DNA of 21,535 nt from Oscillospiraceae bacterium (GTDB taxonomy: Bacteria; Bacillota; Clostridia; Saccharofermentanales; Saccharofermentanaceae), in contig CACXGG010000188.1 of assembly GCA_902767145.1 (NCBI GenBank), positions 1 to 21,535 of the forward strand, in the 5' to 3' direction. Both the position numbers and the translations under genes were made by a program. The notes beneath the pieces are model-generated. The model made no database searches, was not told where the DNA came from, and was given only the letters and a program-made list of their open reading frames with translations. Below are positions 1,366-9,995 of the stretch, piece after piece; the stretch's first letter is position 1; each line of letters begins with the position of its first letter.

Positions 1366-3162
1366 GTGACAGCGGATATCTCTTTTTACGAAAAAAGATC
1401 CGGAGAGATCGCGGATCTGATCGTAGTCAAGGAAAAGGCCGACCGCAGAATGAGTGCTCTGCGGCTTATTTTTTTCCTTATATCGGCAGCACTCCTGGTA
1501 TGCGGATTTGTCTTTGGAAGGAACGTGATAATCTTCGTTCTTTCGGGTATCGTTTTTGCCGGTTTTATCGCCCTTTGTATCCTTCACGGGAAGATAAAGT
1601 ATGAGCTCACTTTTCTTCAGACTAAAAAGGAAGTGACCGAGCTTTACCTTGCCAGGATCTACGGTGATTTTGAGGTGCTGAAGGATAAGGGTGAAGAATT
1701 TTCCGACAATAAGCATGACTATGCCACAGACCTGGATCTTTTTGGTGAAAGGTCTCTTTTTGCCCTCTATAACATCTCCGAGACAGGCTATGGAAGGAAT
1801 ATGTTCTCCAGGTTCCTTAAGGGAAAGGATGATATCCCCGGAAACGCACCGGATATGGTGAAGGACCTTCTTTCAAGGAAGGACCTTCTCATCGATTATC
1901 AGACCACTTCTAAGATCCTGAAGATGGATAAGTATAAAAATGCCCTGGCTGACTTTTCGGACAGGAAAAAGGATATAGGCAGTAAGAAGCGCCTGCTCTA
2001 CAAAGTGCTTCCATGCCTTTGGATCGTGCCTCTGGTCATGTTCTTCATGGGACTTGATATCGCAGGTGCCGTGGCCTCCGTTGTGCTCCTTATAGACCTT
2101 GTGGTATGGGGACTTATCTCAGCTGAATATAAAGAGGACCTTTCCAGGACCATCTGGATATCAGAACATGCAGAGGCCCTCACTAAGTTATATGAACTTC
2201 TCGAAAAGGAGGAGTTCAGTGACAGTGCCCTTAAGGAGCTTGTATCCAAAGGCGCTCCTGAAGGGAAGAAGGTATCAGATTACTTAAGGGAGATCTCAGG
2301 GGCATGTAATCTCTGCTCTTTAAGATCCCAGCCCATCTTTGCCCTTATACTGAACTCTGTCTTTCCCTTTGATCTTTTCTGTGCAGACAGGATCTTCGGG
2401 ATGGCTGTGAGATATGGCGATAATTATAAAGAGTCTTCCGCTGCACTTCCCATCGTCGAAGCACTTATGTGCGCAGCTGTTCCCGGACTCGTCTCAAAAA
2501 GCAGTGCCTTCCCGGAATTCGTGGAGGATACAGGTGATATCTCAGATCAGGCTTATTTCAAGGGTGAGGATATATGCCATCCTCTGCTGGATCCCTCCAA
2601 GTGCGTTTCAAATTCCATAGAACTCTCTGGAAATACAGCACTTATCACAGGTTCCAATATGTCGGGTAAGACGACTCTTATAAGGACCGTAGGCGTATCC
2701 TGTGTCCTTGCATATATGGGCTCTCCTGTACCGTGCACATCTGTCAGGATGGGCAGGATGAAGATCGTCAGCTCCATGAGGATCGTTGACAGTATAGAGG
2801 AGAATATGAGTACCTTTAAGGCTGAGCTTGTCAGGATCGGAAGGATCATTGAAGTCTCAAGGGAGAACAGGCCCATGCTCTTTCTTATCGATGAGATCTT
2901 CAGGGGTACAAACTCCAAGGACAGGACTGACGGAGCCATGAAGGTACTGGAGATTTTGGATAAATCATATATAACAGGTCTTATGACTACCCATGATTAT
3001 GAGCTATGTGACAAAGTTTCCGAAAGTTTGAAATCGATTGTTTATTATCATTTTTCCGAGAAGTATAATGACAACAGCATTTTATTTGATTATAAGCTCC
3101 ACCAGGGCATCTCGCATGAGTCCAATGCCGCATTCCTTATGAAGCTGGTGGGGATAGGATAA
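1366..3162 (+). CDS. Membrane-anchored MutS-like ATPase
   Basis: 598 residues starting at GTG 1366, with AAGGAAGGA just upstream overlapping the sirtuin end. Two membrane segments lie at about residues 31-50 and 53-73 and another hydrophobic pair at about 215-255. A MutS core-type segment (DLDLFGERSLF) begins near residue 122. The ATPase domain has Walker A GSNMSGKTT (429-437), the conserved loop ENMSTFKAEL, Walker B LFLIDEIFRGTNS (D509, E510) and the TTHDYEL histidine switch. The mismatch-recognition and connector domains of classical MutS are absent, as is a Smr nuclease. This matches the family of roughly 600-residue membrane MutS homologues in Clostridia and Bacteroidetes whose function is not established. 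The ATPase looks intact. Classical mismatch repair is unlikely (inference). Confidence 0.85.
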   Translation: MTADISFYEKRSGEIADLIVVKEKADRRMSALRLIFFLISAALLVCGFVFGRNVIIFVLSGIVFAGFIALCILHGKIKYELTFLQTKKEVTELYLARIYGDFEVLKDKGEEFSDNKHDYATDLDLFGERSLFALYNISETGYGRNMFSRFLKGKDDIPGNAPDMVKDLLSRKDLLIDYQTTSKILKMDKYKNALADFSDRKKDIGSKKRLLYKVLPCLWIVPLVMFFMGLDIAGAVASVVLLIDLVVWGLISAEYKEDLSRTIWISEHAEALTKLYELLEKEEFSDSALKELVSKGAPEGKKVSDYLREISGACNLCSLRSQPIFALILNSVFPFDLFCADRIFGMAVRYGDNYKESSAALPIVEALMCAAVPGLVSKSSAFPEFVEDTGDISDQAYFKGEDICHPLLDPSKCVSNSIELSGNTALITGSNMSGKTTLIRTVGVSCVLAYMGSPVPCTSVRMGRMKIVSSMRIVDSIEENMSTFKAELVRIGRIIEVSRENRPMLFLIDEIFRGTNSKDRTDGAMKVLEILDKSYITGLMTTHDYELCDKVSESLKSIVYYHFSEKYNDNSILFDYKLHQGISHESNAAFLMKLVGIG

Positions 3163-3171
3163 GGGGGATTT

Positions 3172-4422
3172 ATGAGATCTTTTATCGAAAAGACCGATTT
3201 CTTTGGAGGCAACGACCCTGAAGCACTTGTGGCTGAGTTCGGCTCTCCGCTCTATGTCTATAACGAGGACATCTTAAGACAGTCCATGAGGACTCTGAAG
3301 AATATAATCACGAAGTATCCTTATACGGCTAACTTCTCCATGAAGGCCAACTCCAATCTTACTATCCTTAAGATGGCTCTTGAGGAAGGCCTCAACTGTG
3401 ATGCCATGAGTGAAGGAGAGATAAGGCTCCTGTTCAAGGCAGGTTTCCCCGCTGACAGGATCTTCTATGTTCCCAATAACGTAAGCGCCGAGGAGCTGGG
3501 ATATGCCCTTGAGCATGATGTTATCACCAGCCTTGACAGTATCGACCAGCTGGAGTCCTTCGGTAAGATCAACAGAGGCGGAAGATGTGCCGTCCGTTTA
3601 AATCCCGGAGTAGGCGCAGGCCATCATGAGAAGGTCATCACAGCAGGTAAGAATACAAAGTTTGCCATTACTGACGATCAACTTGATGAGATGTTCGAGA
3701 CAGCAAAGAAGTATGATCTTAAGATCGTAGGTATCAACCAGCATATCGGTTCACTTTTCATGGAACCCGAACCTTATCTCAAGGCTGTAAGGAATATCCT
3801 TCATATGGCCGAGAGATTCGACCATCTTGAGTTCATCGATTTCGGCGGCGGCTTCGGAGTGCCTTACCACAAGGTTTCCGAGGATGAGCAGCCCTTCGAT
3901 TTCGATCTTCTCTCCACAGAACTGGAGAAGATCCTTGACGAGTTTACACAGAAGGTGGGATATGTCCCTCTCTTCAAGTCTGAGCCCGGCAGATATACAG
4001 CCTGCGAAGGCGGCGTTCTCCTGGGAAGGGTACATGCCGTAAAGACAAATGCAGGAAAGAAGTTTGCAGGTACCGACATCGGAATGAATATCCTTGTCCG
4101 TCCCTCACTCTACGGTTCCTGGCATGATATCGAAGTCTTAAGGGACGGAAAGCCTGTCTATGAAGGTGACAGGGAGACCGTTACGGTAACCGGAAATATC
4201 TGTGAGTCAGGTGACATCATCGCCAAGGAAAGGGATCTTCCCGTCATCAAGACAGGTGATCTTGTCTGTGCTCTCGATGCAGGTTCCTACGGCTATGCCA
4301 TGGCCTCAAACTACAACCAGAGACTCCGTCCTGCAGAGATCCTCATAACAAGCGATAAGAAGGTAAAACTCATCAGAAAGAGGGATACATACGAGGAAAT
4401 GTTTAAATGTTTTGACATTTAA
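3172..4422 (+). CDS. lysA: Diaminopimelate decarboxylase
   Basis: Last step of lysine synthesis: meso-diaminopimelate to L-lysine plus CO2, PLP-dependent, cytoplasmic. 416 residues, normal for the family. The alanine-racemase-like barrel contains the PLP lysine K58 in FSMKANSN, HIGS, the phosphate-binding loop GGGFGVPY and EPGR. The C-terminal sheet domain supplies C344 in CESGD and the DAGSYGYAMASNYN motif that closes the active site. The start is ATG 3172 behind AAGGGGG, which overlaps the stop of the mutS-like gene. It is the last gene of its operon. No lysine riboswitch or T-box fits in the 9-bp gap, so any lysine control must act from outside the window. Related fold-III decarboxylases are a possible alternative, but the motifs favour LysA. 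Confidence 0.93.
   Translation: MRSFIEKTDFFGGNDPEALVAEFGSPLYVYNEDILRQSMRTLKNIITKYPYTANFSMKANSNLTILKMALEEGLNCDAMSEGEIRLLFKAGFPADRIFYVPNNVSAEELGYALEHDVITSLDSIDQLESFGKINRGGRCAVRLNPGVGAGHHEKVITAGKNTKFAITDDQLDEMFETAKKYDLKIVGINQHIGSLFMEPEPYLKAVRNILHMAERFDHLEFIDFGGGFGVPYHKVSEDEQPFDFDLLSTELEKILDEFTQKVGYVPLFKSEPGRYTACEGGVLLGRVHAVKTNAGKKFAGTDIGMNILVRPSLYGSWHDIEVLRDGKPVYEGDRETVTVTGNICESGDIIAKERDLPVIKTGDLVCALDAGSYGYAMASNYNQRLRPAEILITSDKKVKLIRKRDTYEEMFKCFDI
4403..4422. repeat. Perfect AT-rich inverted repeat over the end of lysA
   Basis: TTAAATGT and ACATTTAA form an 8-bp stem around a TTTG loop, ending exactly on the lysA stop codon. The stem is mostly A-T pairs and no clean run of T follows it, so it is at best a weak terminator or an RNA 3'-end structure. 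Confidence 0.5.
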
Positions 4423-4494
4423 GCCGTATTTCTTGAAAAATCTCACTCATTTTTGCCACATTTTGTTCAAAATTCATTGTGCTGTATTTCTTTT

Positions 4495-4500
4495 TATAAT
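4495..4500 (+). promoter_or_regulatory. -10 box for the kinase/vWA/PP2C operon
   Basis: A perfect TATAAT lies in the AT-rich 92-bp gap after lysA, with only a weak -35 (TTCATT at 4473-4478, 16-bp spacer). Transcription would start at about 4506-4508, only a few bases before the ATG at 4515. This implies a near-leaderless mRNA, consistent with the lack of a Shine-Dalgarno sequence. Position and consensus are seen; activity is inferred. Confidence 0.55.
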
Positions 4501-4514
4501 AAAATAAATTGAAT

Positions 4515-6284
4515 ATGGCACTTGAAGCATTGAGAAATTATAAGTCCCTGATCGTGGACTATTCCATCATCCGTGAGGCGGGAGGAACTGCTCTTTTCAG
4601 CGAGTTCCTCGACATCGTTGTGTCCTGCTCCATGGACATATATGTCAGCAAGTCATTTAAGCTTTTACACTACTGTGTTATCCATCAGGCTGACACGAAG
4701 AATGCTGCTGCATCAAATGCCATGAAGGACCTTTGCGGACTTCTGCTTCCCGAAAGAAAGCTTCATTCCGTCCAGTGTCTCGAGACTAATGATTTTGTCA
4801 GGAGTACTGCAGATATTCCCGACAGCTGTTTTGTAACTACAGCCAATTCCATCTTCACCAAGAGGATCCTGGAGAAGAGACCTGAGTTCCATAATGATAT
4901 CTGCATCATCGGTGCCAAGAGTATCAATGTCTATCACGGACTTAATGACCTTATCCTCAATATGCCCCAGGTCAGGATCAGTCCTCTGGCAAGCGTTAAT
5001 AAATATCTGGATGCTTCAGTATTCTGTAACGTAGGTGATACTGTCCTTACAGGAGACCAGAGAAAGCTCACTCTCACAAAGAGGGTAAGCAGCGGTGCAG
5101 AGGGAATGGTATTTACAACAGACGATCCCAAGCTGGTAGCCAAGATCTATCACAAGGGTGTCATCACACCCCTGCGCTGGAGCAAGCTCACCAAGATGGT
5201 ATCTATGGGTATCAAGAGCGTAGGCATCTGCTGGCCCCGTGATCTTATCTTCTACAGGGGAGTTCCCGTGGGGTATACCATGATCCTCGGTAAGGGCAAG
5301 ACACTGGGCAATGTCTTTGACGGTCCCGATGCAATGATGAACAACTTCCCCAAGTGGACCAGGGTCGATATCACCACTACTCTCTGTGACCTTCTGGAGA
5401 AGTATCTATACCTTCATATGCACAACATCATCGCAGGTGATATCCAGCTTAAGAATGCTCTTATCTTCTCTGCGAATTCCCTTTATCTCATCGATATGGA
5501 TTCCGTCCAGGTGGATGACATGCCCTGTCCGGTAGGAACTGAGGAGTTCACGGATCCCAGGCTCTGGGGCCAGAACTTCAGCGGATTCCTGAGAAAGCTG
5601 GGAGATGAGGATTATTCCATCGCCATGCTGGTATTCTCCATCCTTTTCTGCGGACTTCATCCCTATGCTACAAGGCTGGGTAAGGAGACCCTGAGGGAGG
5701 AGATAGTCGAGAAGAACTTCCCCTATGATCTTCAGAATGCTTCTGAGGAGCATATCCCCAAGGGCGGATATAACTACATCTGGCAGTACCTTCCAGAGAA
5801 TATCAGGAACATGCTCTATAACGTTTTCAAGAACGGTGCCTCCTATGAGGCAGTGGAATGGTATGATGCTGTCCTTTCATATAAGGAAGCACTTACAAGC
5901 AGGAATATGGAAGATGAGGAAGCTTATAAGATCTTCCCGAAGATGGAATATCATCAGACGGCAGAAGCAGCTCCTGCCGAGGAAGCTCCCGCAAGACCCA
6001 TGTTCAAGACGAGATTTCAGGGACTCAACGACCCTAATATATACAGCGGCGGTCTGGGAGACCAGAACAGCAGACCCGTAAATCCCCATAAGTATCCGGG
6101 ACCTTTCGTCCCCAAGGAGGACACGGGATTTGATAATCCGCCCACTTCGCCATTTGCACCGCCGGTATCTCCTTTTGCCGCACCTTCCGAAAGGCCACAG
6201 GCGACGGCTGAACCGGAAGACAACAGTGGTGACGACAGCGGTAACGGTGTATTTAAGAAATTCAAGAAAGGCCTTTTTGGCTGA
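4515..6284 (+). CDS. Ser/Thr-type protein kinase with N-terminal PIN-like region (TerY-P triad kinase)
   Basis: 589 residues from ATG 4515; an in-frame TTG at 4509 is the only earlier start, and neither has a Shine-Dalgarno. Residues about 8-170 resemble a PIN-like fold (SLIVDYSII with D15; CFVTTANSIFTKRIL near 105-118) but lack most catalytic acids. The kinase domain covers about 182-400. It has a glycine loop SSGAEGMVF (192-200), VAKIY with K210, a catalytic loop AGDIQLKN (D309, K313, N314), LIDMDS replacing DFG (D327), and DEDYSIAML as the alpha-F region. All core catalytic residues are present although HRD reads AGD. Residues about 420-589 are a Pro-rich, probably disordered tail with two SPFA(P/A)P units, ending in a basic VFKKFKKGLFG. 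It is followed after 18 bp by a vWA gene and then a PP2C gene, the context of the TerY-P signalling triad. Confidence 0.85.
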   Translation: MALEALRNYKSLIVDYSIIREAGGTALFSEFLDIVVSCSMDIYVSKSFKLLHYCVIHQADTKNAAASNAMKDLCGLLLPERKLHSVQCLETNDFVRSTADIPDSCFVTTANSIFTKRILEKRPEFHNDICIIGAKSINVYHGLNDLILNMPQVRISPLASVNKYLDASVFCNVGDTVLTGDQRKLTLTKRVSSGAEGMVFTTDDPKLVAKIYHKGVITPLRWSKLTKMVSMGIKSVGICWPRDLIFYRGVPVGYTMILGKGKTLGNVFDGPDAMMNNFPKWTRVDITTTLCDLLEKYLYLHMHNIIAGDIQLKNALIFSANSLYLIDMDSVQVDDMPCPVGTEEFTDPRLWGQNFSGFLRKLGDEDYSIAMLVFSILFCGLHPYATRLGKETLREEIVEKNFPYDLQNASEEHIPKGGYNYIWQYLPENIRNMLYNVFKNGASYEAVEWYDAVLSYKEALTSRNMEDEEAYKIFPKMEYHQTAEAAPAEEAPARPMFKTRFQGLNDPNIYSGGLGDQNSRPVNPHKYPGPFVPKEDTGFDNPPTSPFAPPVSPFAAPSERPQATAEPEDNSGDDSGNGVFKKFKKGLFG

Positions 6285-6302
6285 TAAGGGAGGAAATGAA
6301 AA

Positions 6303-7025
6303 ATGGCTGATAATTTCAGTGCTTCAGATTTCGGTAACAGTACCAAGAGACGACTTCCCATCTGTTTTTGTCTCGATACATCCGGTTCCATGATGGGTGA
6401 TCCCATCAGGCAGCTCAACATGGGACTTTCGAACTTTATCGCATCCATCAAGGCTAATGATGATACAAGATCTGCTACGGATATCGCCATCATCACCTTC
6501 GGTTCTTCCGTAGAGATCGTAATGCCCTTCGGTAAGATCAAGGATGAGGGACTTCCCGAGATCTCAGCATCCACCACCATGACCCCCATCGGTGAGGGTA
6601 TCCTTACTGCACTGGAGCTCCTTAATGCCCGTAAGGAAGGATATAAGGAGATGGGTATCAAGTATTACCAGCCCTGGCTGGTAGTCATCACCGACGGTGC
6701 TCCCCAGGGTCCCAATGCCATGGCCAACATGAGACTTGCCATCCAGGCATGTAATGAACTGGAGAAGGATGACAAGCTGGTCATCTTCAATATCGGTGTA
6801 GGAAACAGCGTTGATTTCGATATATTAAAGCAGCTCTCAGTAAAGAGGGAAGAGCCCATCTCCGTAACATCGGGAGATTTCGGAAAGCTCTTTGAATTCC
6901 TGGGTTCCTCCTCATCTTCAGTCGTATCCTCCGGTATGAGCGATGATGCTCTTTACAACATCAACACCGAGCCCGAGGGCGAGTCAGTTGAAGTCGACGA
7001 TTTCTTTAAGTATATGGAAGAATAA
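6303..7025 (+). CDS. von Willebrand factor A domain protein, TerY-like
   Basis: 240-residue soluble protein. The start is ATG 6303 behind GGGAGG at 6288-6293. The vWA fold covers about residues 17-205 with a complete metal-ion-dependent adhesion site: DTSGSM (D25, S27, S29), TTMTPIGEG (T94 region) and VITDGAP (D131). The length and the PICFCLDTSGSM and MTPIGEG motifs fit the TerY family, cytoplasmic vWA proteins of tellurite and stress gene neighbourhoods. A Ser-rich linker (about 204-213) leads to an acidic tail ending VDDFFKYMEE. It sits between the kinase and PP2C genes with 18-bp gaps on each side, so all three are expected to be expressed together. Its role as an assembly or substrate-presenting factor for the kinase/phosphatase pair is inferred. 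Confidence 0.9.
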   Translation: MADNFSASDFGNSTKRRLPICFCLDTSGSMMGDPIRQLNMGLSNFIASIKANDDTRSATDIAIITFGSSVEIVMPFGKIKDEGLPEISASTTMTPIGEGILTALELLNARKEGYKEMGIKYYQPWLVVITDGAPQGPNAMANMRLAIQACNELEKDDKLVIFNIGVGNSVDFDILKQLSVKREEPISVTSGDFGKLFEFLGSSSSSVVSSGMSDDALYNINTEPEGESVEVDDFFKYMEE

Positions 7026-7043
7026 CAGGAACAGAAGGTATAT

Positions 7044-8135
7044 ATGCCGGATATTAAAACAGCAGCAGTCACCATAATCGGACAGAAGCACAGGCAGCGC
7101 GGGATCCCCTGTGAGGATTCATCCTGCACTCTTTCCAGAAATGGTGTAGATGTAGTCGTCGTTGCAGACGGCGCAGGCTCAAAGCAGTATACACATGCAA
7201 GATACGGTTCCGCAGCAGCGGTAAGGACTATCTCCGAGCTTCTTGCAGACCACTTTGATGCAATATATAACGAGAACAGGGAGGCGGCTGTAAGGAGCCT
7301 TATCATCGCCTCCATCACCATAGCTTTTGCGGATCTTGTAAAGGAGCATAAGCTGGATTCCATGGAGAGGCTTTCCTGTACGCTTCTCTTCTGTGCCGTA
7401 AAGGACAGAAGGATGATCGCAGGCCACATAGGTGACGGTCTTATCGTAAGGGTATCTCCTTCAGGAGTCAGTCCTCTTACAATGCCCCAGAACGGAACTA
7501 ATGCTTCCTCCACATATTTTGTAACTGCTCCCCATGCGGCAGATTATTTAAGGCTCATAAAGACCACCACAGATGATATCCACGCCATCGCCATCATGAC
7601 CGACGGTGTCCAGGATTCCGTCTACGATGAGAATAACGGACTTGTAAAGCCGGTTGTGGCCAGGATGGTAGAGACCTTATCCTTCGGTAAGGAAAAGAGT
7701 GAGACAGAGATAAAGGCTATACTTGAAAAGTATATAGTAGGTGCCAGCAACAACAGCGACGACGCTTCCTTCGGTGCTCTTTATATCGATAAGACAAAGG
7801 GCCCTGATGCCAAGTCGCTTCCCACAGGAGCCGATGCTTTCCCCAGAAACTCCGAGACGTTCAAGGACCTTCAGAACCTTATGCTCCCGGATGTAAAGAA
7901 AGCCAGGAACATACTCATAGAGGCCAAGGCCAATACTCCTGTCGGAAAGAATGAGGATGAGGAACATCCCACAAGGAAGAATGCCGAGAACGAGAAGGCA
8001 GCTTCCGTCACACCCGATAAGATCAAAAAAGTAACATCATCAACGAAACGTACATCTTATCTTGTATATGGTTTGGCAATTCTGGAATTTATTGCGATAA
8101 TAATCTTACTGGTTAAGATCTTTTTCTTGAAATAA
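7044..8135 (+). CDS. PP2C-family protein phosphatase with C-terminal membrane anchor
   Basis: 363 residues, starting at ATG 7044 behind AGAAGG. The N-terminal roughly 255 residues carry the PP2C metal-binding signatures: CED (E24, D25), VVADGAGS (D42, G43), GHIGDG (D131), IMTDGV (D187) and NNSDDAS (D239, D240), so it should be an active Mn/Mg-dependent serine/threonine phosphatase. A polar linker (about 255-335) is followed by one hydrophobic segment at about 339-363 that ends the protein, a tail anchor that would leave the phosphatase in the cytoplasm. It is the third gene of the kinase operon and the presumed counter-enzyme to the kinase. Regulation by the vWA partner is inferred from known triads. 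Confidence 0.9.
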   Translation: MPDIKTAAVTIIGQKHRQRGIPCEDSSCTLSRNGVDVVVVADGAGSKQYTHARYGSAAAVRTISELLADHFDAIYNENREAAVRSLIIASITIAFADLVKEHKLDSMERLSCTLLFCAVKDRRMIAGHIGDGLIVRVSPSGVSPLTMPQNGTNASSTYFVTAPHAADYLRLIKTTTDDIHAIAIMTDGVQDSVYDENNGLVKPVVARMVETLSFGKEKSETEIKAILEKYIVGASNNSDDASFGALYIDKTKGPDAKSLPTGADAFPRNSETFKDLQNLMLPDVKKARNILIEAKANTPVGKNEDEEHPTRKNAENEKAASVTPDKIKKVTSSTKRTSYLVYGLAILEFIAIIILLVKIFFLK

Positions 8136-8147
8136 AGGAGGGGACTT

Positions 8148-9029
8148 ATGAATTCAGACGAAAAGAAATATGAAGTACTTCCCGGCGTACAGACACCGGA
8201 CATGAAAACTATAGTTGCAGCCGCATCGGATTTCACAGTATCCGGTGTTGACGATGTGGATGTTAAGAGGATCGAAGAGATCGTTCCTGCCAAGGATGCC
8301 ATCAGGGCAGCCACCAACGCTGATGCCACTGAGCTTCAGGCTCTCGGCAACAAGGTTGCTGAAGAGGAGCAGAGAGCTTCCGAAGAGAGTAAGAAGAGAA
8401 TGGCAGCCATCAAGAACCAGGCTGTATCTGCTCCTGAATCCATTTCCTCCCTTAAGCAGAAGGCAAGCACCATAGCAAGCGAAGAGCGTAAGGAAGCCAT
8501 CGCCAAGGAGCAGGAGGAGCAGAAGGCTAAGCAGGCTGAGGAAGAGGCTAAGCAGGCTGCAAGAGAAGAGAGAAGACAGAAGCAGCAGCAGGCTCTCGAG
8601 GAAAGCCTTGCCAGAAAGGCAAAAGAAGCAGAGAAGAAGGCTGCCGAAGAGGAAGCTAAGAGATCTGCCGAAAAGGCTGAGGAAGATGCAAAGCAGGCTG
8701 AAGAGAAGAAAAAAGCCAAGGAAGAAGCTCTTGCCAAGGTCAACAGCGCCAATAAGGGATCTGCCCAGGACGACGAATATAAGGCATGGGTCAAGGCCAA
8801 GAAAGAAGCTGCCATCAAGGAACAGCAGGAGAAGCAGGCAAAAGCCGGCGAAGCTGCCAAGAAGGCAGAGGAAGCTCCCAAGGAAGAGCCTGCACAGGAA
8901 GAGGCTCCCAAAGTAGAAGAGCCCAAGCCGGCGCCGGCACCGGCACCGAATCCTTCTTCAAGCGAAGGAGAAAAGGGCGGCATAGCATCTGACGATGAGA
9001 CTATGGATGACTTCAGTGAATTCCTCTGA
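8148..9029 (+). CDS. Lys/Ala/Glu-rich coiled-coil protein of the kinase operon
   Basis: 293 residues, unrecognised by family. The start ATG 8148 has the strongest ribosome site of the operon, AAGGAGGGG at 8135-8143, overlapping the PP2C stop. Residues 1-60 are acidic and less repetitive (EVLPGVQTPDMKTIVAAASD). About 65-245 is a long charged helix rich in EEQ/AKQAEEEAK heptad-like runs, resembling TolA- or tropomyosin-like coiled coils by composition only. A Pro-Ala hinge (PAPAPAPNP near 261) leads to an acidic end, DDETMDDFSEFL. There is no signal peptide or membrane segment. As the last gene of the kinase/vWA/PP2C operon it may be the scaffold or a phosphorylation substrate; this is inference. 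Database hits would be dominated by low complexity. Confidence 0.75.
   Translation: MNSDEKKYEVLPGVQTPDMKTIVAAASDFTVSGVDDVDVKRIEEIVPAKDAIRAATNADATELQALGNKVAEEEQRASEESKKRMAAIKNQAVSAPESISSLKQKASTIASEERKEAIAKEQEEQKAKQAEEEAKQAAREERRQKQQQALEESLARKAKEAEKKAAEEEAKRSAEKAEEDAKQAEEKKKAKEEALAKVNSANKGSAQDDEYKAWVKAKKEAAIKEQQEKQAKAGEAAKKAEEAPKEEPAQEEAPKVEEPKPAPAPAPNPSSSEGEKGGIASDDETMDDFSEFL
8928..8948 (+). repeat. Short 6-bp tandem repeat encoding Pro-Ala
   Basis: Three near-identical CCGGC(G/A) units plus a final CCG encode alternating proline and alanine in the coiled-coil gene. It is the most GC-rich spot of that gene and could slip in frame (two residues per unit). Confidence 0.6.
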
Positions 9030-9995
9030 TCAATGTAAGATCAAAGCAAGAACTATATAAACGATATCAATAACAAGGGCAGCTGACACGATCACTGCCC
9101 ATGTTTTTTTCACGCTCAATCCCTTGCGCTTCTTAAGGTGATCGTGGATAGGCGTAGTTACGTTCTTTAAGATGATGACCTTCTTCTTTGTAAGCCTTCC
9201 GATGGTGATCTTAAGGATGGAAAGACCGCCGTCGAAAAGGAAGGGAAGACAGATCACCAGATATGCAAAAGGTATCTTCAGATACATGGAATAGATGGCT
9301 ATGAAAAATCCCAGGGCCCTGGAACCTGCGTCGCCCATAAGGACCTTACTGGGGTTGAAGTTGAAGATGAGATATGCCAGAAGGGCAGATATAAGGATAA
9401 GGCCTCTCAGAAGACCGTGTTCGGTAAGAGTACCGTTTATCACTGCAACGATGATAAAAGTGATGATGCTCAATATGGTAAGGGTACCTGAAAGACCGTC
9501 CACGCCGTCAGTTGCATTTGTGGCATTTACCGCAACTACTATGAGCATGACTGCAAGACAGAAGAAGATGGGTGCGGAGATGAAAAGTGACTGGCCCGTA
9601 AGACCGATCTTTACTTCTGTTCCGTAAGCGACTACGAATACTGCGGCACCGATACCTGCCACAAGAAAGTCCAGGGCGCCCTTTATGTATTCACCCCAGG
9701 GCTCGTCGGATCTGTCGTCCAGAAAGCCGAAGATCATGGAGAGAAGCACCAGGAGCATCAGGAAAAGACAGCCTGAACCGCCGAAAGTGAATATAAGGGA
9801 TACGATCACCGTTACCGTTATAAAGTAGATACCCACTCCGGTGGGCTTTCCTATATTGACCTCGCTTCCTGCGGCATAGAGACGGCCTCTGTCGTGGCCG
9901 AGAAGCTTTTTGCCGAAGGGAAGAAAACGCATACACAGAAAGACCGCAATAAAGGAAACTGCACATGCTGCTATTGATATTACCGTATTACCCAT
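9030..9995 (-). CDS. mraY: MraY-family phospho-sugar transferase (phospho-MurNAc-pentapeptide transferase-like)
   Basis: 321-residue polytopic membrane protein. It would transfer phospho-MurNAc-pentapeptide from UDP to undecaprenyl phosphate (lipid I) at the inner face of the membrane. Motifs: GKPTGVG (49-55), FGFLDD (D93, D94), NATNATDGVDGLSG (157-170), NFNPSKVLMGDAGS (212-225, D222) and the C-terminal loop TPIHDHLKKRKG with H284 and H286 (HDH where MraY usually has HHH). About ten hydrophobic segments. WecA/Rfe-type GlcNAc-1-P transferases are the main alternative, but the PIHDH loop favours MraY. No other cell-wall cluster gene is nearby, so it could be a second or relocated copy. Start ATG at 9995; GAGGAGAG and AGGA lie upstream. 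Its stop abuts the stop of the coiled-coil gene with no spacer. Confidence 0.72.
   Translation of the reverse strand: MGNTVISIAACAVSFIAVFLCMRFLPFGKKLLGHDRGRLYAAGSEVNIGKPTGVGIYFITVTVIVSLIFTFGGSGCLFLMLLVLLSMIFGFLDDRSDEPWGEYIKGALDFLVAGIGAAVFVVAYGTEVKIGLTGQSLFISAPIFFCLAVMLIVVAVNATNATDGVDGLSGTLTILSIITFIIVAVINGTLTEHGLLRGLILISALLAYLIFNFNPSKVLMGDAGSRALGFFIAIYSMYLKIPFAYLVICLPFLFDGGLSILKITIGRLTKKKVIILKNVTTPIHDHLKKRKGLSVKKTWAVIVSAALVIDIVYIVLALILH
9077..9110 (+). terminator. Intrinsic terminator of the kinase operon, inside the mraY-like gene
   Basis: GGGCAG (9077-9082) pairs with CTGCCC (9095-9100). Inside it, after a bulged C, TGA pairs with TCA around a CACGA loop. ATG then seven T (9104-9110) follow on the plus strand. 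It lies 47 bp past the stop of the coiled-coil gene. On the minus strand the same bases encode residues about 296-307 of the MraY-like protein (KKTWAVIVSAAL). Confidence 0.75.

What the first reader, a model, noticed from the sequence alone, without database searches (positions are those of the whole stretch)
4515..9029. Kinase-vWA-PP2C operon (TerY-P-like triad) with a fourth coiled-coil gene and no ter genes
The three signalling genes carry intact catalytic or metal motifs and are spaced 12-18 bp apart, matching the TerY-P arrangement of kinase, TerY-type vWA and PP2C. Known examples are discussed with tellurite or chemical-stress (TerC/TerD) genes, none of which is in the window. The added Lys/Ala/Glu coiled-coil protein with a strong ribosome site is a candidate dedicated substrate or scaffold. 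It could be a self-contained phospho-signalling module of unknown input and output.
Basis: partly seen in the sequence, partly recalled or inferred. Interest (0 to 1): 0.72.

Follow-up and report, generated by a model that had tools for sequence, protein, structure and literature searches.

The report
Family-core four-gene phosphorylation switch operon
A family of gut bacteria carries, at a largely fixed place in the chromosome, a four-gene operon for adding and removing phosphate on proteins: a relative of the poorly understood E. coli YegI/PphC/YegL set, with a rod-shaped fourth partner that shares a tail motif with one of the other three.

Summary
Four ORFs (kinase 4515-6284, TerY-type vWA 6303-7025, PP2C 7044-8135, coiled coil "CC4" 8148-9029) lie 18, 18 and 12 bp apart. 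They stand together in 31 of 33 same-genus loci (two end at contig edges) and in all 20 sister-genus loci read (of 28; CC4 diverged in some). The kinase is in 108 of 115 family genomes searched; the misses are 64-88% complete. TerC and TerD gave no match in 59 same-genus genomes.

The triad is homologous to E. coli YegI-PphC-YegL and so to TerY-P, but lacks the C-terminal zinc ribbon or OB-fold of TerY-P kinases and has an N-terminal domain of PIN-like topology (unconfirmed by sequence). The phosphatase is tail-anchored in every relative checked; the kinase anchor survives mainly in sister genera.

New: vWA and CC4 end in the same acidic-aromatic motif (DDFFKYM; DDFSEFL). In the window's (78% complete) genome that pattern occurs twice, at these two C-termini.

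Best reading: a vertically inherited second Ser/Thr phospho-switch (a PrkC-like pair is also present), with CC4 as its docking scaffold or substrate. New variant of a known kind; input and output unproven.

The parts
4515..4964 (+). kinase gene, N-terminal alpha/beta domain (aa 1-150), PIN-like order of strands and helices; of the acidic residues of a PIN nuclease (recalled) only D15 is conserved
   Evidence: AF2 secondary structure b1 a1 a2 b2 a3 a4 b3 a5 b4 a6 b5 with 10-residue means of 90 or more; conserved D15, S17, F48, K49, H52, R117; sequence tests for PIN not significant
5040..5939 (+). kinase domain (aa 176-475), YegI/TerY-P class, with K210, D309, N314, D327
5940..6284 (+). disordered, cysteine-free kinase tail ending GVFKKFKKGLFG; stands where 16 of 20 sister-genus kinases have a C-terminal TM helix
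   Evidence: pLDDT under 50 at 495-506, 508-582, 584-589
6303..7025 (+). TerY/YegL-type vWA protein with complete MIDAS; the most conserved of the four (80-98% identity to the window in the loci)
6996..7015 (+). C-terminal DDFFKYM of the vWA protein (motif shared with CC4)
7044..8135 (+). PP2C-type phosphatase, PphC-like; metal-site motifs present by eye
   Evidence: PF13672 6.1e-40; PphC 26%; sequence
8052..8132 (+). C-terminal TM helix (tail anchor) of PP2C, by hydropathy
   Evidence: best mean 2.88 over 19 residues; at least 1.6 in 77 of 77 loci and above 2 in 20 of 20 sister-genus loci (five loci shared)
8148..9029 (+). CC4, coiled-coil/rod protein with conserved ends and variable middle
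8163..8249 (+). conserved N-terminal motif of CC4, KKYEVLPGV..PDxKTI..AASDF[ST]
   Evidence: invariant Y8, L11, P12, G13, P17, D18, S27, D28, F29 in 39 sequences; a related motif in sister genera
8481..8837 (+). single predicted helix aa 112-230 of CC4
   Evidence: AF2
9006..9025 (+). C-terminal DDFSEFL of CC4 (motif shared with the vWA tail)

Best explanation
A second, chromosomally fixed Ser/Thr phospho-switch of the YegI-PphC-YegL (TerY-P-like) type. SHOWN by sequence and models: four co-directional genes inherited together across one family; a YegI-class kinase with its catalytic residues and an extra N-terminal domain; a MIDAS vWA protein; a PP2C with a hydrophobic tail anchor; and a rod-like CC4 whose two ends are conserved while its middle drifts. 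vWA and CC4 carry the same C-terminal acidic-aromatic motif. INFERRED: kinase and PP2C are opposing writer and eraser held at the inner face of the membrane, the PP2C by its TM tail, the kinase by a TM tail in most sister-genus loci and by its basic-aromatic tail or by partners in the window's genus. The metal-dependent vWA protein is the hub that bridges kinase, phosphatase and client. CC4 is the dedicated client or scaffold, recruited because its C-terminus mimics that of the vWA protein, so both compete for, or jointly occupy, one acceptor groove (perhaps the kinase's N-terminal domain). Phosphorylation would then switch what CC4 holds together. Cell-envelope control is the likeliest output but only weakly indicated.
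For: Homology to the E. coli set. In E. coli, YegI is reported as a membrane-bound autophosphorylating kinase that PphC dephosphorylates (passage of PMC13232886; the two primary papers were not held). Conserved operon. Catalytic and MIDAS residues. Tail anchors. CC4 conserved at both ends. Shared tail motif: D[DE]F..[YF][LM] in the last 20 residues of 41 of 79 vWA and 36 of 69 CC4 proteins against 0 of 866 other ORF tails of the same 80 loci. In the window's genome the back-translated pattern occurs twice, at exactly these two C-termini. In 12 genomes 16 of 29 hits are these C-termini; the only other hits within 10 residues of a stop are two in 12-codon frames. Another kinase (PASTA-like repeats, by eye) with its own PP2C gene stands elsewhere in the window's genome, so this is a separate system.
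Against: No binding, phosphorylation or co-expression was measured. Homologues are not independent samples, so the motif counts overstate the evidence. The exact pattern misses CC4 in 7 of 12 genomes and the vWA protein in 1 of 12. In sister genera the CC4 tails that were printed differ (SESVDDDFLDF-like, or no such end) while the vWA tail stays. No complex could be modelled. The kinase lacks a TM in the window and in 4 of 20 sister-genus loci. The promoter scan was no better than shuffled sequence, so the transcript start is unproven. The input signal is unknown. The envelope link rests on neighbours that are convergent, not co-transcribed.
Confidence: 0.6

Rival explanations
1. It is a stand-alone anti-phage TerY-P-like defence cassette, like the OB-fold variant tested by Gao et al. 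2020.
For: Same three enzyme classes; TerY-P-like modules were reported as antiphage systems (passage of PMC11090510). A distant class-level relative (L183) has a TIR-domain gene directly upstream of a kinase-zinc-ribbon gene and a vWA gene. The PP2C has a weak match to a PADLOC candidate model, PDC-M21C, E 0.00026.
Against: Present in 108 of 115 family genomes searched, behind the same MutS-domain and often lysA-like genes in most loci read, where defence cassettes are usually patchy; no OB-fold or zinc ribbon; no PADLOC model named TerY-P was hit at E<=0.1.
Confidence: 0.12
2. It belongs to a tellurite/chemical-stress (Ter) response whose TerC/TerD partners lie elsewhere in the genome.
For: The vWA protein is of TerY type.
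Against: TerD 0 of 59 and TerC 0 of 59 same-genus genomes; the same searches found matches in 2 and 9 of 14 control genomes.
Confidence: 0.03
3. CC4 is only a co-transcribed passenger (for example an envelope or cytoskeletal rod protein) and the triad acts on unrelated targets.
For: CC4 evolves fastest (37-65% identity over the aligned part) and is much shorter in some sister-genus loci (114-135 aa).
Against: Adjacent in every locus with sequence there; conserved N-terminal motif; C-terminal motif matches that of the vWA protein.
Confidence: 0.2
4. The module regulates septal or lateral wall synthesis through a phospho-reader FHA domain on an FtsW/RodA-type protein.
For: In two sister-genus genomes an FtsW-type gene and a PBP gene lie next to CC4; in L251 they lie between CC4 and the MraY-like gene and the FtsW protein has an FHA domain (53.8 bits). 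In L142 the FHA match is only 13.0 bits, below the cut-off, at a contig end. In 23 of 80 loci the MraY-like gene is found downstream.
Against: The genes are convergent; the next neighbour after CC4 varies in most loci; PrkC-type kinases are the usual partners of such FHA proteins (recalled); none of 18 FHA matches in 12 same-genus genomes lies within 85 kb of the operon on the same contig.
Confidence: 0.25

Closest known systems
E. coli YegI (kinase) - PphC/YegK (PP2C) - YegL (vWA)
   Same: All three enzymes are homologous (YegL 35% over 194 aa, PphC 26%, YegI kinase domain hhalign 99.3%); chromosomal, with no ter gene in the 15 kb seen; membrane kinase in E. coli, membrane-anchored phosphatase here.
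   Different: E. coli order is yegL-pphC-yegI with yegJ inserted in K-12; YegI starts with its kinase domain and has hydrophobic stretches and further sequence behind it; no CC4; PphC has no TM tail and YegL no DDFFKYM tail.
TerY-P triad (TerY vWA + PP2C + STK with C-terminal zinc ribbon; Anantharaman et al. 2012 as described in PMC11090510, passages)
   Same: Same three enzyme classes as adjacent genes; TerY-type vWA.
   Different: No zinc ribbon; extra N-terminal domain; no TerC/TerD match in the genus; family-core instead of patchy; CC4 added.
PIN-kinase-zinc-ribbon proteins of other Clostridia (L182 type; named relatives in Peptostreptococcus and Selenomonas)
   Same: N-terminal domain before a kinase of the same class, followed by a TerY-type vWA gene.
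   Different: L182 reaches PIN_4 exactly at its cut-off, keeps PIN acidic residues (by eye) and has a C-terminal zinc finger; N-terminal domains show no significant sequence match to the window's.
PrkC/Stp PASTA kinase-phosphatase pair
   Same: Reversible Ser/Thr phosphorylation at the membrane; such a pair is in the same genome.
   Different: Different kinase class; no PASTA domains, vWA and CC4 partners instead.

Membership tests
TerY-P triad | TerY-type vWA protein with MIDAS | tested here: met
   YegL-like, 35% identity; D25, S27, S29, T94, D131 invariant
TerY-P triad | adjacent PP2C phosphatase | tested here: met
   PP2C_2 6.1e-40; 18 bp after the vWA gene
TerY-P triad | Ser/Thr kinase of the same class | tested here: met
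   hhalign to YegI 99.3% over 289 columns
TerY-P triad | zinc ribbon fused to the kinase C-terminus | tested here: not met
   tail disordered; 66 of 71 tails without Cys, at most 2
TerY-P triad | linked to ter genes or DNA-processing modules | tested here: not met
   TerD 0 of 59, TerC 0 of 59; neighbours in the window and loci read are of other kinds. A MutS-domain ATPase gene lies upstream; DNA-processing modules elsewhere in the genome were not searched
OB-fold TerY-P-like antiphage system | OB-fold at the kinase C-terminus | tested here: not met
   residues 495-506, 508-582 and 584-589 below pLDDT 50, no strands
OB-fold TerY-P-like antiphage system | confers phage resistance | not testable with these tools
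   needs a plaque assay
YegI-PphC-YegL type module | homologous kinase, PP2C and vWA encoded together | tested here: met
YegI-PphC-YegL type module | membrane-bound kinase dephosphorylated by its PP2C | tested here: inconclusive
   kinase TM tail in 16 of 20 sister-genus loci but not in the window; dephosphorylation not testable
PIN domain (N-terminal part of the kinase) | PIN order of strands and helices | tested here: inconclusive
   order seen in the AF2 model and read against the PIN fold from recall; the rows shown of the fold searches (50 of 1996, and 50) are kinase chains
PIN domain (N-terminal part of the kinase) | significant sequence/profile match | tested here: inconclusive
   hhalign to PIN-kinase N-termini E 0.78, reversed control 0.34, to single sequences 0.47 and 0.16; no PIN family among Pfam hits of 29 members; no PDB match below E 0.55
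PrkC/Stp | extracellular PASTA repeats on the kinase | tested here: not met
   no TM tail in the window kinase, disordered tail; no PASTA among Pfam hits

The most novel reading that the evidence does not exclude
A metal-gated membrane phospho-switch in which a vWA hub and a rod-forming coiled-coil client use matching C-terminal docking motifs to compete for one groove, perhaps on a nuclease-dead PIN-like domain of the kinase, and in which phosphorylation of the rod controls envelope assembly (FHA-FtsW/PBP) as a core function of one whole bacterial family.
Probability: 0.15. Interest if true: 0.75.

Novelty: new variant of a known kind. Interest (0 to 1): 0.5.

Why it matters
How the vWA protein of YegI-PphC-YegL and TerY-P sets couples kinase and phosphatase, and what they act on, is to my knowledge largely open. 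Here the set is a family-core operon with a single obvious candidate client, CC4, that shares a short C-terminal motif with the vWA protein. That makes the question directly testable with four proteins and two peptides, outside any defence or tellurite setting.

Tried and rejected
Ter-cluster reading: rejected for TerC and TerD within the genus (59 genomes drawn from a larger group, 32 of them at least 90% complete).

PIN identity of the kinase N-terminal domain: topology fits, but profile comparison with 60 PIN-kinase N-termini (60 of the 120 listed homologues, length 750-840 aa) was no better than a reversed control, and single sequences gave nothing. Pfam on 29 members gave no PIN family and the PDB sequence search gave four matches, best E 0.55, none a PIN protein. 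I therefore say PIN-like topology only.

Mobile defence cassette: not favoured because of near-universal presence in the family and conserved upstream neighbours. PADLOC hits at E<=0.1 were PD-T4-6, PDC-M21C (PP2C, E 0.00026) and PDC-S02, none named TerY-P.

FHA readers as a direct partner in the window's genus: FHA domains match in 11 of 12 genomes; the window's own (78% complete) had none. Of the 18 FHA matches I read four loci (L198, L205, L208, L215): none shows FtsW fused to FHA. The other 14 were not read.

Leaderless kinase mRNA: a TATAAT box 14 bp before the ATG is seen in the window, but distances from such boxes to a start vary from 0 to 39 nt across 67 loci, and the promoter scan of 4300-9200 found 7 sites where shuffles give 6.3 and did not list this one; not pursued. 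The ribosome-site counts were made on mechanical ORF starts and are not used.

Rows dropped and caveats: two CC4 relatives that look frame-shifted (P0152, P0156) and P0142 (named partial) were left out of alignment A3 (A2 lacked only P0142). CC4 is absent by tblastn in 7 of 80 loci: three end at contig edges (L064, L071, L101), four (L139-L142) have a diverged ORF with the N-terminal motif. The 20 sister-genus loci are 20 of the 28 sister-genus genomes with a kinase match. In one search, 60 genomes without a match were not listed; the figure of 115 family genomes assumes that these 60, which follow rows marked 'same order', lie outside the family. In one search the greedy ORF picker missed some CC4 genes overlaid by antisense frames (for example L079); (tblastn) is the count used.
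Full report
What is there. Four genes on the + strand: kinase 4515-6284 (589 aa), vWA 6303-7025 (240 aa), PP2C 7044-8135 (363 aa) and CC4 8148-9029 (293 aa), with gaps of 18, 18 and 12 bp. Upstream lie PH, Sir2, MutS-domain and lysA-like genes; downstream, on the other strand and abutting, an MraY-like gene. The genome is a draft of 1.89 Mb, 78% complete. Named relatives are Saccharofermentans and Mageeibacillus sp. and unclassified Clostridiales, many from rumen or gut by their record titles.

vWA and PP2C. The vWA protein is 35% identical to YegL over 194 aa and keeps the full MIDAS. It is the most conserved member: identity to the window is 80-98% in the loci, against 48-87% for the kinase and 37-65% over the aligned part for CC4. 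The PP2C has its metal motifs (by eye) and a C-terminal hydrophobic helix in 77 of 77 loci and 20 of 20 sister-genus loci (five shared, so 92 distinct). The kinase has such a helix in 16 of 20 sister-genus loci and in 5 of 80 loci of the other set, those five being L139-L143. Elsewhere it ends in a basic-aromatic peptide (70 of 71 by a loose rule).

CC4. The protein search returned 42 homologues (only the 7993 candidates sharing most words were scored). The ends are conserved and the middle is low-complexity and variable. The model is a long helix with a short C-terminal helix at a mean confidence of about 70. Sister genera carry a shorter or diverged form with a related N-terminal motif (hhalign 96.3%, E 1.8e-9).

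Shared tail motif. vWA ends ...VDDFFKYMEE and CC4 ...MDDFSEFL. D[DE]F..[YF][LM] is found in the last 20 residues of 41 of 79 vWA and 36 of 69 CC4 proteins, and in 0 of 429 unnamed plus 0 of 437 other named ORFs of the same loci. The back-translated pattern occurs 29 times in 12 genomes. Sixteen are these C-termini (vWA in 11 of 12 genomes, CC4 in 5 of 12). Of the other 13, eight lie 91-484 residues before the stop, three 11-23 residues before it, and two end 12-codon frames. The window's genome has 2 hits, both in this operon. The pattern read backwards gave 2 hits in the 12 genomes. In sister genera the vWA tail persists ([DE][DE]FF in 20 of 20), while the CC4 tails that were printed end differently (SESVDDDFLDF-like, or no such end). 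So the vWA tail seems older, and CC4 seems to have gained the mimic in the window's genus (inference).

Distribution. Kinase: 108 of 188 genomes of the order at E<=1e-10, all in one family (80 of 85 of the genus, 28 of 30 of other genera). The 7 family misses are 64-88% complete; no genome of the rest of the order matched (with the caveat on 60 unlisted rows). In the class, 20 of 393 genomes matched, 14 in the family and 6 outside it (E 3e-77 to 1.7e-8). Gene order KIN-VWA-PP2C-CC4: 31 of 33 loci; CC4 in 73 of 80 by tblastn, plus 4 diverged and 3 loci cut at contig ends; triad in 20 of 20 sister-genus loci read (of 28), CC4 in 19 by tblastn and the last by its ORF. What follows CC4 varies. TerD 0 of 59, TerC 0 of 59. 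A kinase of 703 aa with PASTA-like repeats (by eye) directly after a PP2C gene stands at another locus of the window's genome, and a strong Pkinase match in a frame of 687-752 codons is in all 12 genomes tested.

Comparison. In print (passages only), TerY-P is described as a TerY vWA, a PP2C and a kinase with a C-terminal zinc ribbon, with an OB-fold variant active against phage (PMC11090510); a TerY-P island in Helicobacter pylori carries restriction-type and secretion-type partners (PMC4978471). YegI is described as a membrane-bound autophosphorylating kinase that PphC dephosphorylates (PMC13232886). The window's set resembles these but fails the zinc-ribbon and OB-fold tests. My searches for TerY-P with vWA/PP2C, for Saccharofermentans, and for TerY with a PIN domain listed no paper whose title or abstract describes this combination (listings, and passages of four papers).

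Mechanism. Shown: gene set, catalytic residues, anchors by hydropathy, tails, inheritance. Inferred: writer and eraser at the membrane, vWA as hub, CC4 as docking scaffold or substrate. The envelope output is a weak lead: in two sister-genus genomes an FtsW-type gene and a PBP gene lie next to CC4, with a clear FHA domain on the FtsW protein in one of them (53.8 bits, L251) and only a sub-threshold match at a contig end in the other (13.0 bits, L142); both sets run convergently to the operon.

Noticed in passing
L251 8564-12731 and L142 10945-13838: Between CC4 and the MraY-like gene (L251) or directly after CC4 (L142, contig end) lie, convergently, a PBP transpeptidase gene and an FtsW-type gene; the FtsW protein of L251 has an FHA domain (53.8 bits), that of L142 a sub-threshold match (13.0 bits).
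   Followed up: partly
window 1366-3162: MutS-domain-V ATPase of 598 aa with hydrophobic N-terminal stretches (by eye) and no other MutS domain in Pfam at E<=0.1, next to Sir2 and a bacterial PH-domain gene in most loci read.
   Followed up: no
window 4415-4515: A TATAAT box 14 bp before the kinase ATG and no clear ribosome site: the kinase mRNA may have an almost absent leader; not constant across loci and not above chance in the promoter scan.
   Followed up: partly
L183 2-3824: TIR plus Sel1-repeat gene directly before a kinase-zinc-ribbon protein and a TerY-type vWA protein: a TerY-P-like set in a possible defence setting.
   Followed up: no
L182 14-3204: Two adjacent genes with PIN-like regions (the first only E 0.23 to PIN_4), the second a PIN-kinase-zinc-finger protein with 1372 database relatives at E<=0.001; an architecture worth a survey.
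   Followed up: partly
L208 1459-2565: FHA protein with DUF6382 next to ATP synthase genes and a secretion-like membrane protein; a protein of similar look in L205.
   Followed up: no
window 9030-9995 (-): MraY-like enzyme far below the MraY cut-off (78.9 against 192 bits): probably a paralogue; found downstream of the operon in 23 of 80 loci.
   Followed up: no
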